From the NCBI RefSeq assembly GCF_024347455.1, contig NZ_AP025483.1:2418001-2482000 (forward strand): DNA of 64,000 nucleotides, read 5' to 3'. The position numbers and the translations under genes were made by a program. The stretch comes from Vibrio echinoideorum. GTDB lineage: Bacteria; Pseudomonadota; Gammaproteobacteria; Enterobacterales; Vibrionaceae. The notes under the pieces are model-generated. The model saw only the letters and a list, made by a program, of their open reading frames with translations, made no database searches and was not told where the DNA came from. Numbering within the stretch: position 1 is the stretch's first letter; every line of letters begins with the position of its first letter. Positions 42,661-56,575 of the stretch are shown here, in pieces.

Positions 42661-42810
42661 CACAATGGGGCACTTTCAAGCTAGAAAGTGCCAAGGGTAG
42701 AAATTCAACCTAAGAAACTCTTGGACAATTCCGTGTTTGGTCATGTACTAATTTAGCTCCACACGGATAACTTTTCGTATTGAAAAATCACTTAGTGCGT
42801 TGTCCAGTAT
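42661..42810 (+). repeat. Island inter-module repeat, copy A
   Basis: ATGGGG (42665), a 9-bp hairpin GGCACTTTC/GAAAGTGCC (42669-42692), then the conserved core: TGGACAATTCCGTGT (42722), CTAATTTAGC (42748) and GGATAACT (42765), ending in GTATTGAAAAATCACT. Core spacings of 26 and 17 bases are the same as in copies B and C. It ends about 25 bases past the stop of the smaller dynamin-like gene, on the opposite strand sense. Confidence 0.75.
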
Positions 42811-42835
42811 TGCTGGTGCAGATCCGTTCGTAACT

Positions 42836-44557
42836 CTACCCAAGGACAAATCTATCGCGCACATTGTTTAGTTCAGATATCGCCTTTTCAATTTGTTGCC
42901 GCTGTTCAATATTCGCTTCTGATGTGCTCTGTAAGTCTTGCAATGCTTCAGAAACATGGCGAATTTCAGTCGTATAGAAAGATGTTGATAACTCATCCAT
43001 ACGTTTAACAAACTCAATTTTCAACTCAAGAAATATTTCCCGATAATTCTTCCTAATATCGCGTCTAGCAGCTATTAGGTCTGCAGCGCGTTTCTCTTGA
43101 TGAATGTCGTCATTGATTTGTACGATTACGCCGATTAACGCCATAACCGGCCCGATAAACTTCGCAGCTGAGCCAATTTTTTCAGCAATATTAATAGCTT
43201 GATAAGGTTTAAATTTGGCGCCAAAAAAGTGTCCTACCTCCAGGACTGCTTTGTGGAGGTTACTGCCCGATGCTGCTTTCATCCCTTCTTTAGCAGTCTT
43301 ATTGATCGCCTGATTTGATAACCATGAGAATCCTTTCTCTGCGGACTTAAGAGTCTGCTGTGTTTTTACCGAACTCTCATATTTATCGCCGATATTATGC
43401 GTTTCAATATCAATATCTGCATTAGCATTAAGTTGATGTGTAGCTTGAAAATGATCGCTCAAAGCGGCTTTGAGTGACTCTGCTAGCGGGCTTGTATCCA
43501 GCTCTTGCAGATCAGATTCAAGAGTACTTAAAGCTGAATCGACGATTTTCTCAAGTTTCAGCTGGGTTTGCTTAACTTGAGCAAGAACATCACCTGCAGA
43601 GCGCTGCTGTATTTGCTTAAAATCCGCCTCATTGAGGCCATCATCCACTGACTCCGCCAGCTCATCACCAATAAGTAGAATATTTTGCTCCATTTCAGCT
43701 AAATTGCCATCAAACTGCTCTTGAAGCTGCTTTTGACTAGACTTTAATATCCTCATCTTTTGCTGAAGCAGTTCAACCAGCGCTTCCTGCGTCGGATCTT
43801 CAGCGGCCAACTTGCCTAGTAACTCTTCTAACTGAGTGTGTATAGCGGCTAACGGTGTAGTCACCTTGCCTAGCAAACCTCTCTCTTGGGAAAATTTGTC
43901 AATAGCTTCGATAAAGCCACTAAAGTTGGATAGAGCCATTAACTCTGCTCTATCTTCTTCATCCTCTTCTTTTAATGACTCGAAATATGACTCTGCATCA
44001 ACAAATACAATAGGAAAGTCTTCCGGTATTCTGGGTTCTAAAACCTCAGCAATCCCATTTAATTTGGTCTCCACAGTACCTGAATCGCGTTGAGATTTAT
44101 TTACTACCAGAAGAATTTCTTTTTCTCTTCCTTTTGTAAAACATAGATCTCTAAATGCAGCCCCAACAACATCGTCAAACAGTTCATTTGTAATCACGTA
44201 AACCAACAAATCCGCTTGATCCATCGCTGCAAATGATGCTTCATCATGCTGCTCCCTTTCACCAGCAAGTATGCCAGGGGTATCCCATACAACCAGATCT
44301 TTGTAGTCATACTTAGTCACTTGATCGGTTGTCACGCCTGAGCCAATGGGAATGTCATCAAGTCCTGTTAATCCTTTAATTAGAGAGGATTTCCCAGAGC
44401 TATATTGGCCAACAAAAGCGATATTTAGCTTTGAATTTTGATACTCGTCTTGATTCGGAAAACTGAGGTCCAGTTCAGTTAACTTATTTCTCTTAGACAA
44501 ATCAGCGATAAATGCCGATACCATCTGTTTAGCCTGATTAAACTTCAACTCTTCCAT
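42836..44557 (-). CDS. Dynamin-like GTPase, LeoA-like (Eleos-type defence)
   Basis: 573 residues from ATG 44557, which overlaps the upstream stop as TAATG; GAGG lies 11 bases before it. GTPase motifs: G1 'GQYSSGKSS' (near residue 50), G2 Thr in 'GSGVTTDQ', G3 'WDTPG', G4 'NKSQ'. Long helices follow ('LLGKLAAEDPTQEALVELLQQKMRILKSSQKQLQEQF'), then a hydrophobic segment ('AAKFIGPVMALIGVIVQIND', near residue 475) and a charged helical tail. The length and bundle-plus-tip layout match LeoA, the bacterial dynamin of enterotoxigenic E. coli (571 residues as recalled). It pairs with the 708-residue GTPase gene directly upstream. Expected to act at the inner membrane, sensing or remodelling during phage infection. 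Confidence 0.7.
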   Translation of the reverse strand: MEELKFNQAKQMVSAFIADLSKRNKLTELDLSFPNQDEYQNSKLNIAFVGQYSSGKSSLIKGLTGLDDIPIGSGVTTDQVTKYDYKDLVVWDTPGILAGEREQHDEASFAAMDQADLLVYVITNELFDDVVGAAFRDLCFTKGREKEILLVVNKSQRDSGTVETKLNGIAEVLEPRIPEDFPIVFVDAESYFESLKEEDEEDRAELMALSNFSGFIEAIDKFSQERGLLGKVTTPLAAIHTQLEELLGKLAAEDPTQEALVELLQQKMRILKSSQKQLQEQFDGNLAEMEQNILLIGDELAESVDDGLNEADFKQIQQRSAGDVLAQVKQTQLKLEKIVDSALSTLESDLQELDTSPLAESLKAALSDHFQATHQLNANADIDIETHNIGDKYESSVKTQQTLKSAEKGFSWLSNQAINKTAKEGMKAASGSNLHKAVLEVGHFFGAKFKPYQAINIAEKIGSAAKFIGPVMALIGVIVQINDDIHQEKRAADLIAARRDIRKNYREIFLELKIEFVKRMDELSTSFYTTEIRHVSEALQDLQSTSEANIEQRQQIEKAISELNNVRDRFVLG

Positions 44558-56216: not shown

Positions 56217-56426
56217 TTAACGAGAACGTTCGAGTTCGTCCGACATTAAGAGAGCGGTGGCCTTTTTTAATATGGATTTTTCTCGTTCTAGCCGGTTAAT
56301 CCGGGCTTCTAACTCTTGGATTTTCTTTTGCTCAGGCGTGAGGGCTTTAGCCGTTGGAGTCATCCCACCTCGCTCAACTTTGAGTTGGTCGACCCATCGC
56401 CGTAAAGCCGTTTCACCTACGCCCAT
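56217..56426 (-). pseudogene. IS3-family OrfA, C-terminal fragment
   Basis: 69 residues: 'GVGETALRRWVDQLKVERGG...[37 protein letters not shown]', the second half of an IS3 OrfA (helix-turn-helix end and leucine zipper). About the first 33 residues are missing, and the in-frame ATG is an accident of the truncation junction. Confidence 0.85.
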
Positions 56427-56535
56427 AGAGTTTGTTGTGGATTAGAAAATTTAGCTACATTGTTGGATCTCTAGGCATGAGGAAAAGTAAGGCAAGTTGC
56501 AGGGTTTGAAACTGAGTTCAATCCCTCTCTGGCTC

Positions 56536-56575
56536 ACAATGGGGCAGAAGCGTGTTAGCTAATTCACTCCTCCAG
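56536..56575 (+). repeat. Partial copy E of the island inter-module repeat
   Basis: CAATGGGGCAGAAGCGTGTT followed by AGCTAATTCACT resembles the 5' part of copy C (TAATGGGGCAGAACTGAGCTAGC). The downstream core is not recognisable; the adjacent IS3 remnant may have removed part of it. It lies just downstream of the srap gene. Confidence 0.45.

What the first reader, a model, noticed from the sequence alone, without database searches (positions are those of the whole stretch)
42661..56575. Family of direct repeats with fixed internal spacing separates every cargo module of the island
Copies A (42661-42810), B (47070-47215) and C (48741-48885) share, in one orientation, a GGGG-plus-hairpin lead and a core of TGGACA, CTAA(A/T)TTAGC and GGATAACT. 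The core spacings are exactly 26 and 17 bases in all three, while the surrounding DNA differs. Partial copies D (41238) and E (56536) share the lead. A and B bracket the dynamin-like pair; B and C bracket the phosphatase-like and 67-residue genes; C and E bracket the adhesin; D and A bracket the HigA-like gene. They read like cassette borders, yet have no integron attC core. Either they are recombination sites used by the island recombinases, or homologous handles for module swapping, or regulatory leaders.
Basis: partly seen in the sequence, partly recalled or inferred. Interest (0 to 1): 0.88.

Follow-up and report, generated by a model that had tools for sequence, protein, structure and literature searches.

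The report
Vibrio gene-cassette shuffling sites
The repeats hold short two-armed sites that nearly always point one way along mobile gene islands and plasmids of Vibrio bacteria, and blocks of genes (here including phage-defence genes) have been joined and swapped at their six-letter cores, likely by a tyrosine recombinase that is still unidentified.

Summary
The repeats are real. Each is a composite of two 12-6-12 sites with inverted arms (consensus CTAACACGnTTT / AAAnCGTGTTAG): alpha (spacer GGGGCA), then beta (TGGACA) about 40, 54 or 71 bp on, followed by an element of fixed spacing. Ten such hits, all on one strand, span the whole cargo of the island, which is an SE-like element (core genes in the order intA-tfp-intB-srap; ends about 36268 and 62303). 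The beta part is found in 141 of 148 genus genomes. In 43 array loci 131 of 132 neighbouring sites point the same way. Homology between arrays breaks at the spacer: 21 of 105 segment ends lie within 20 bp of one, against 1.0 for rotated sites. In Vibrio campbellii plasmids one site is closed in four records and holds 10.5 kb in a fifth. So these are borders of exchangeable cassettes, rather than homology handles, RNA leaders or a plain dispersed repeat. The recombinase is unknown. No recombinase family covers the arrays, so it likely acts in trans; SE/GMT-type operons are my first, unproven candidate. Ten full-text searches listed no description, but the library lacks most subscription journals.

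The parts
36268..62303 (.). whole island, an SE-like integrative element inserted at the 3' end of an RND-transporter gene; junctions at a run of A, ends approximate
   Evidence: empty site in relative G017 (L084): window up to 36271 and from 62305 on are contiguous there
36524..36553 (+). beta site (spacer TGGACA 36536-36541), distal border of the cargo, left of the Gabija genes
   Evidence: score 25.5
36653..40831 (-). cassette cargo: gajB (36653-38578) and gajA (38588-40831)
   Evidence: PADLOC GajB 1.2e-222, GajA 2e-239
41030..41059 (+). alpha site (spacer GGGGCA 41042-41047); its right half is joined to four different left flanks in four loci
   Evidence: score 31.3; joins
41231..41260 (+). 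D: degenerate alpha-like sequence (GGGGTA 41243-41248)
   Evidence: sequence; score 3.3, far below the cut-off of 14
42323..42574 (-). cassette cargo: 83-aa protein, shared with G006 and G011 arrays
42655..42684 (+). alpha site of copy A
   Evidence: score 28.8
42710..42739 (+). beta site of copy A, 55 bp after alpha
   Evidence: score 29.0
42740..42788 (+). element with fixed spacing that follows beta (copy A)
   Evidence: alignment A1
42836..46683 (-). cassette cargo: LeoA-like (42836-44566) and LeoBC-like (44557-46683) dynamins
   Evidence: PADLOC 2.6e-117 and 1.7e-107
46952..46981 (+). alpha-like hit with spacer GAGGCA
   Evidence: score 19.9
47062..47091 (+). alpha site of copy B (spacer GGGGTA)
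   Evidence: score 19.4
47102..47131 (+). beta site of copy B, 40 bp after alpha
   Evidence: score 31.1
47132..47180 (+). element with fixed spacing that follows beta (copy B)
47461..48503 (+). cassette cargo: LMWPc-like protein (47461-47931) and 67-aa protein (48300-48503); window 47115-48737 is 99.0% identical to L043 12333-13956
48733..48762 (+). alpha site of copy C
   Evidence: score 38.1
48804..48833 (+). beta site of copy C, 71 bp after alpha
   Evidence: score 39.5
48834..48882 (+). element with fixed spacing that follows beta (copy C)
49333..51033 (-). cargo: YadA-anchor adhesin-like protein; genes that look like insertion-sequence transposases follow to 56426 (recognised by eye)
   Evidence: ORF list
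56529..56558 (+). E: alpha site at the border between cargo and core genes, about 120 bp from the srap stop codon
   Evidence: score 37.8
56662..57069 (-). srap-like core gene, 135 aa (VPA1267 family)
   Evidence: NCBIfam NF040697 9.2e-5, under its cut-off; position
57072..59225 (-). intB-like core gene, 717 aa
   Evidence: position and size; relative in G037 at 49 and 58% in two pieces
59228..60967 (-). tfp-like core gene, 579 aa
   Evidence: position and size only
60964..62190 (-). intA-like tyrosine recombinase, 408 aa
   Evidence: XerC-type profile 1.7e-10, under its cut-off; relative in G037 at 55%

Best explanation
The repeats are borders of gene cassettes, each holding one or two 12-6-12 core sites at whose 6-bp spacer neighbouring DNA has been exchanged, likely by a tyrosine recombinase supplied in trans and not yet identified. 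Sites come in two main spacer classes, alpha GGGGCA and beta TGGACA, and nearly always point the same way along an array. The commonest unit is beta, cargo, alpha, then a piece of about 40, 54 or 71 bp leading to the next beta. Shown here: the sites, their orientation, the array architecture, breakpoints at the spacer, and one closed versus occupied site in V. campbellii plasmids. Inferred: that a tyrosine recombinase does it (from the 6-bp spacer and inverted arms), that cassettes pass through a circular form, and that the enzyme comes from outside the array. First candidate for the enzyme is the SE/GMT-type recombinase operon, because an alpha site sits at the end of that operon in several islands with different core genes.
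For: (1) In an arms-only scan of 67 loci, spacer length 6 stands out: 100 hits over 16 bits against 1 in shuffles; lengths 4, 5 and 7-10 give at most 6; 115 of 149 listed hits have one of the two spacers. (2) In 43 chosen loci 131 of 132 adjacent sites agree in orientation; 5 of 175 sites lie in ORFs of 100 aa or more, which cover 74% of the DNA; 35 of 36 short intervals run alpha to beta, in three sizes. (3) Among 181 distinct sites, 67 same-class pairs share only the left flank, 150 only the right, 1 both; in left-shared pairs identity drops from 0.96 at the last spacer base to 0.45 at the next. (4) Ends of cross-genome segments (at least 90% identical, at least 300 bp) lie within 20 bp of a spacer in 21 of 105 cases; rotated sites give 1.0 on average, at most 5 in 1000 (a recount without two look-alikes). 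(5) Exact joins: the right half at window 41042 has four left partners; a 3.65-kb stretch at 99.5% in two species ends at spacers on both sides. (6) V. campbellii plasmids: X-GGGGCA-Y in four records; X-GGGGTA-10.5 kb-GGGGCA-Y in LJC014. (7) One-flank sharing: 384 pairs within spacer classes, 4 of 12,412 across. (8) A scoring alpha site within about 530 bp beyond the srap or GmtX gene in 4 of 17 core loci.
Against: No recombination was observed, only its products. No recombinase family covers the arrays: the widest reach 3 of 16 sources. The cores differ widely while the sites share arms, and the window island's own ends do not look like the sites. Five core loci (L076, L077, L078/L079, L080, L081) show no site in the stretches fetched, and one site at L070 2572 points the other way. 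84 of 105 segment ends are not near a site, and the 21 that are include both sides of one event and a duplicated stretch (L047/L048). One event crosses the spacer classes. By construction: the arm model was trained on sites found with the 6-bp geometry in many of the same loci, and spacer identity within a class is built in. A 4-pair stem (GGCA/TGCC) in the alpha-to-beta piece is kept in nearly all 23 copies, one with changes on both sides, so a role as hairpin there is not excluded.
Confidence: 0.8

Rival explanations
1. The repeats are homology handles: RecA-type recombination between dispersed copies shuffles the cargo between them.
For: Copies share 60-80 bp of similar sequence, and the element after beta is conserved.
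Against: Joins fall at the 6-bp spacer between arms that differ; the three right-hand partners of one left half in V. campbellii share no more than the arm pattern; sites carry direction and spacer class.
Confidence: 0.07
2. The repeat is an ordinary dispersed element (MITE, REP-like) or a conserved RNA or regulatory leader.
For: Present in nearly all genomes of the genus, 1-27 listed per genome; a short stem in the alpha-to-beta piece.
Against: No consensus pair in 32 copies of beta with its right flank; arms show no consistent covariation within a copy; ORFs lie in both directions relative to the site, 83 same and 130 opposite; flanks change on either side of the spacer, so no fixed unit moves.
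Confidence: 0.04
3. They are integron attC sites or Xer pdif modules in disguise.
For: Arms end in CTAAC/GTTAG, like integron core boxes, and pdif modules also have a 6-bp spacer (both recalled).
Against: The site is 30 bp with joins in the centre; no Rfam match there; sites point one way, while pdif sites alternate and dif arms differ (recalled).
Confidence: 0.06
4. The enzyme is the chromosome-2 encoded, Cre-like recombinase of Vibrio (G000:C2:920432-921412), a single protein that would fit symmetric arms.
For: Best solved-structure matches are Cre, 6e-9; found in 112 of 148 genus genomes at E 1e-20.
Against: Genomes without it keep many sites, e.g. G021 10, G091 16, G067 17; no site over the cut-off in the 17-18 kb stretches around it in four genomes.
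Confidence: 0.12

Closest known systems
Integron cassette arrays (IntI, attI/attC)
   Same: One-way array of exchangeable gene cassettes; in some islands a site beside a recombinase operon.
   Different: Sites are 30-bp double-arm sites with joins at a central 6-bp spacer; two spacer classes; genes lie in both directions.
Xer pdif modules of Acinetobacter plasmids
   Same: Modules without their own recombinase, bordered by short sites with a 6-bp spacer (recalled; listing and abstracts only).
   Different: Arms are symmetric and unlike dif (recalled); orientation does not alternate; two spacer classes.
Strand-biased circularizing integrative elements (SE) and GInt/GMT/Tn554-like elements
   Same: The window island has the SE gene order and a split target at a short A run (PMC10214605, parts 1-5 of 10 read). 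Internal sites also have a 6-bp spacer between imperfect inverted arms.
   Different: The window SE's own ends differ from the internal sites; the internal sites recur inside the cargo and are shared by SE-like islands, a GMT-type island and plasmids. A word search of PMC10214605 for nest, tandem, array, cassette and repeat showed no such internal arrays in the passages shown.
Engineered recombinase-mediated cassette exchange with incompatible lox sites (recalled)
   Same: Cargo between two sites of different spacer class.
   Different: Natural, in long arrays, 6-bp instead of 8-bp spacers; one natural event crosses classes.

Membership tests
SE element (for the island as a whole) | Four core genes intA-tfp-intB-srap in this order at one end | tested here: met
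   ORFs of 408, 579, 717 and 135 aa in this order on one strand; profile matches only weak, so this rests on order and size
SE element (for the island as a whole) | Split target with 6-bp spacer at the junctions | tested here: met
   6 or 7 A at the two junctions, empty site in G017
SE element (for the island as a whole) | Strand-biased circle formation without an empty site | not testable with these tools
   needs PCR and sequencing
SE element (for the island as a whole) | Sequence similarity to reference SE rather than GInt proteins; RHRY residues | not tested
   no reference SE proteins were fetched
Integron cassette array | attC site (some 57-141 nt, folded single strand, exchange at an outer box; recalled) | tested here: not met
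   30-bp site, joins in the central 6 bp
Integron cassette array | Cassette genes in one direction relative to the site | tested here: not met
   83 same, 130 opposite
Integron cassette array | Integron integrase beside the array | tested here: inconclusive
   none among the recurring families of 37 array loci, but not every ORF was tested against integrase profiles
Xer pdif module | XerC and XerD arms | tested here: inconclusive
   symmetric consensus compared by eye with recalled dif only
Xer pdif module | Alternating site orientation | tested here: not met
   131 of 132 same orientation
Tyrosine-recombinase core site (general kind) | Inverted arms around a 6-8 bp spacer, exchange within the spacer | tested here: met
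Tyrosine-recombinase core site (general kind) | A recombinase that acts on it | not testable with these tools
   needs an assay; no enzyme identified

The most novel reading that the evidence does not exclude
Vibrio and marine relatives run a second, integron-independent cassette system: a natural form of recombinase-mediated cassette exchange, in which two spacer classes (alpha and beta) alternate along one-way arrays so that cargo is replaced between an alpha and a beta site while order and direction are kept, fed in trans by recombinases of visiting SE/GMT islands, and used among other things to restock phage-defence genes.
Probability: 0.3. Interest if true: 0.92.

Novelty: new variant of a known kind. 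Interest (0 to 1): 0.8.

Why it matters
Vibrio is the textbook genus for integrons, yet this site family is in 141 of 148 of its genomes searched and marks borders of cargo that includes Gabija and dynamin-type defence genes. If a recombinase is found, it would explain how defence and other accessory genes are restocked inside islands and plasmids without moving the whole island, would let annotators cut islands into true cassettes, and could give a new recombinase with two spacer classes for DNA work.

Tried and rejected
Conserved RNA: RNAalifold on 32 copies of beta with its right flank gives no pair (a 33rd, L109 11540, was left out because it lacks the element); 23 alpha-to-beta pieces give a 4-pair stem with one two-sided change. 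Rfam: only the SRP RNA in the window. A third spacer class CCGGCG in two loci was rejected: it lies in or beside the 3' end of a type I restriction hsdS gene. A recombinase pair beside a site in G011/G006 plasmids was dropped as general enzyme because it is in two genomes only. The Cre-like chromosome-2 gene was first favoured from a small sample, then weakened by the larger one. An early result that half-sites are never shared between spacer classes (0 of 8,184) was corrected by the V. campbellii plasmids (4 of 12,412, one event). A search for joins equal to the left of one and the right of another site of one array gave 3 cases, too loosely matched to use. A strict pattern in the own genome: no match. 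Phage records: no match; viral contigs: none to one exact pattern. The window B / L043 start is not a clean swap: in L043 and L044 a group II intron seems to sit inside that beta spacer.

Counting notes: searches used 181 distinct sites over score 18, one search used 223; one search used 43 loci that I chose (duplicate or overlapping L045, L048, L063 and loci without sites left out); L039 and L044/L045 may be parts of one plasmid; identical 306-bp sites were counted once; L136 and L137 are 99.85% identical over 18.5 kb. Searches used score 14, where shuffles gave 4 alpha and 0 beta hits. Counts per genome are capped at 32 scored candidates.
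Full report
What is there. Aligning copies from the window with those found in other Vibrio genomes showed that the repeat is not one unit. Many copies agree up to CTCTGGACA and then differ, others agree only from TTTTGGACA on. A score matrix grown from these joins gave a palindromic site: CTAACACGnTTT, six bases, AAAnCGTGTTAG. 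Scanning with arms only, over 67 loci and 1.32 Mb, spacer length 6 stands out (100 hits over 16 bits against 1 in shuffled DNA; 199 against 39 over 12 bits), while lengths 4, 5 and 7-10 give at most 6 hits over 16 bits. The arm model was trained on sites of the 6-bp geometry from many of the same loci, so this test is not independent. Two spacers dominate: TGGACA (beta, 59) and GGGGCA (alpha, 56) of 149 listed hits. Both arms follow the same consensus but show no consistent covariation within a copy. Thirty-two aligned copies of beta with its right flank have no consensus RNA pair; 23 alpha-to-beta pieces share a 4-pair stem, GGCA with TGCC, with one copy changed on both sides. On balance this looks like a site bound as double-stranded DNA by a recombinase.

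The window island. Over a cut-off at which shuffled loci gave 4 alpha and 0 beta hits per 0.99 Mb, the window holds ten hits, all on the + strand: beta 36536, alpha 41042, alpha 42667 and beta 42722 (copy A), alpha-like 46964, alpha 47074 and beta 47114 (B), alpha 48745 and beta 48816 (C), alpha 56541 (E). D is far below the cut-off (3.3). The hits cut the cargo into Gabija, an 83-aa gene, a LeoA/LeoBC-type dynamin pair, an LMWPc-like gene with a 67-aa gene, and a YadA-anchor protein with what look like insertion sequences. At the right end stand four genes of 135, 717, 579 and 408 aa on the - strand. [quoted passage not shown] PMC10214605, parts 1-5 of 10 read; PMC9345347, passages read). The empty target in a relative (G017, L084) puts the island ends at about 36268 and 62303, at a run of 6 or 7 A by the 3' end of an RND gene. 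In G005 a recombinase-profile hit lies about 1.6 kb from the same RND gene end. So the array fills the whole cargo: the first site is about 270 bp from one island end, the last about 120 bp from the srap stop. The island's own ends share neither spacer nor arms with the internal sites.

How common. The 156-bp copy C finds matches in 26 of 61 genomes, the own one included, all in the genus. A sequence-only model of beta with its right flank finds matches in 141 of 148 genus genomes at E 1e-3, with 1 to 27 listed per genome, and at E 1e-5 in 30 of 197 genomes of the order, 13 of the own genus and 17 of others. Among plasmid records, 52 match copy B: Vibrio 46, Photobacterium 4, Salinivibrio 1, Shewanella 1. 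Phage records: none.

Architecture. In 43 chosen array loci with 175 sites, 131 of 132 neighbouring sites (up to 9 kb apart) point the same way. Of 95 longer intervals 55 run beta to alpha, 18 alpha to alpha, 13 alpha to beta, 9 beta to beta, with a median of 2.45 kb; of 36 intervals under 110 bp, 35 run alpha to beta, in three sizes near 40, 54 and 71 bp. Sites avoid genes: 5 of 175 lie inside ORFs of 100 aa or more, which cover 74% of the DNA. ORFs lie in both directions (83 with the site, 130 against), unlike integron cassettes (recalled).

Evidence for exchange at the spacer. (a) Among 181 distinct sites, same-class pairs alike on one flank only number 67 (left) and 150 (right), with 1 alike on both; in left-shared pairs identity is 0.96 at the last spacer base and 0.45 at the next. 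In right-shared pairs the outer right flank is alike but the right arm itself is less so (about 0.5 to 0.8 over most of it), so many of these share an old common element rather than a recent swap. (b) In a blastn comparison between genomes, 21 of 105 segment ends lie within 20 bp of a spacer centre against 1.0 for rotated sites, at most 5 in 1000 rotations (one search gave 23 with two look-alike sites in it). The ends are not all independent: one event can count in both partners, and L047/L048 are copies in one genome. The other 84 ends are not explained by sites. (c) Exact joins were read by eye: the right half at window 41042 follows four different left flanks (window, L054, L068, L052); a 3.65-kb stretch at 99.5% identity in G018 and G005 has different neighbours beyond both spacers. 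Window 47115-48737 is 99.0% identical to a stretch in G011, but there the left join seems to be a beta site split by a group II intron. (d) V. campbellii plasmids give the cleanest case. DS40M4, LJC013, LJC015 and ATCC 25920 have the same join X-GGGGCA-Y (LJC013 and LJC015 are nearly the same plasmid). LJC014 agrees with DS40M4 over 3.4 kb at 99.35% up to the spacer, reads GGGGTA there, and 10.5 kb further on has GGGGCA followed by a 90% version of Y. Whether LJC014 gained or the others lost the stretch is not known. Elsewhere in these plasmids one left half is joined at TGGACA to three different right halves.

Spacer classes. With the V. campbellii loci added (223 sites), one-flank sharing within classes is 40+129 of 6,670 alpha pairs and 106+109 of 5,671 beta pairs (30 more share both flanks), and 4 of 12,412 across. 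All four trace to one event, in which a short alpha piece stands between a left half and the beta spacer that follows it directly in DS40M4. Identity of spacers is therefore usual but not absolute. An insertion that leaves its own six bases on one side and the target's on the other is what the SE paper describes for SE movement (PMC10214605). That is one reason to think of SE-type enzymes; it is inference.

Which enzyme. In 707 ORFs from 37 array loci of 16 sources, no recombinase family is wide: the widest, a serine-recombinase type and an intB type, reach 3 sources each among the 30 widest clusters shown, so the enzyme likely acts in trans. I looked at 17 loci taken as SE/GInt/GMT-like cores, by profile hits and gene runs. 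A scoring alpha site lies within about 530 bp beyond the srap or GmtX gene in 4 (window E, L064, L065, L055; the last a GMT-type island, GmtX profile 1e-70); a fifth, L063, has only a degenerate one there, read by eye (score 3.2). In L067, and in L069 beside the L070 core, alpha lies 40 and about 140 bp beyond a 721-723-aa gene that in L067 follows srap. In all seven the site and the core genes lie on opposite strands, the genes running towards the site. L066, L072, L074, L075 and L071 with L050 have sites farther off with the same polarity; the site at L070 2572 has the other. Five loci (L076, L077, L078/L079, L080, L081) have no site in the stretch fetched. A Cre-like gene on chromosome 2 (solved-structure matches to Cre at 6e-9) is in 112 of 148 genus genomes, but genomes without it keep many sites, and no site over the cut-off lies near it in four genomes. 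I rank SE/GMT-type operons first, at roughly 0.35 by judgement, and leave the enzyme open.

Comparison and novelty. It works like a cassette array. It fails two integron tests (site and place of exchange, gene direction) and one pdif test (alternating orientation); the integrase and arm tests are inconclusive. The ten full-text searches listed no paper whose title or abstract start describes such arrays, and a word search of the main SE paper showed nothing on internal arrays of this kind in the passages shown. GInt (PMC5385486) was seen in outline and abstract only, PMC12595487 in outline and passages. The library lacks most subscription journals, and the main GMT paper (recalled) was not among the listings, so absence from print is not shown. 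I rate it a new variant of a known kind.

Noticed in passing
L039 9211-11370, L044 1622-3790 and 15947-18120, L043 10149-12332, L067 15912-18070: Group II introns (ltrA annotated in L039, related DNA in the others) sit in the arrays; in L039, L043 and L044 the downstream join reads CGGACA, so the intron seems to home into the beta spacer between T and GGACA.
   Followed up: partly
L103 8430-9413 (G000:C2:920432-921412): A Cre-like tyrosine recombinase of about 327 aa, found in 112 of 148 genus genomes at E 1e-20, mostly one copy; no function is known to me.
   Followed up: partly
window 62374-62403 and G005:C1:1013865-1021000: The 3' end of an RND-transporter gene looks like a shared insertion target: an SE-like core stands there in the window genome, and a recombinase-profile hit lies about 1.6 kb from it in G005. 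A short direct repeat of the gene end lies beside the window junction.
   Followed up: partly
L047 and L048 (G018:C1:2.76 and 1.68 Mb): A 16.5-kb stretch with sites is 100% identical at two places of one genome in opposite orientation, with an integrase-type profile hit some kilobases outside each.
   Followed up: no
L107 14583 and L115 3855: The 3' end of hsdS genes imitates the site arms around CCGGCG; another restriction-system gene stands there in G006.
   Followed up: yes
window 42740-42788, 47132-47180, 48834-48882: The element that follows beta keeps its spacing in 31 of 32 aligned copies and has invariant bases; its role is unknown (accessory binding site or promoter would be testable).
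   Followed up: partly
L067 13191-15790 and L069 14208-16810: A pair of genes of about 145 and 721 aa stands next to an alpha site in two arrays of G011 and next to srap in L067; not identified.
   Followed up: no
window 54933-55040 and 52471-52501: GTGATCGG direct and inverted repeats flank a gene pair that looks like an IS21-type transposon (recalled) in the last cassette interval.
   Followed up: no
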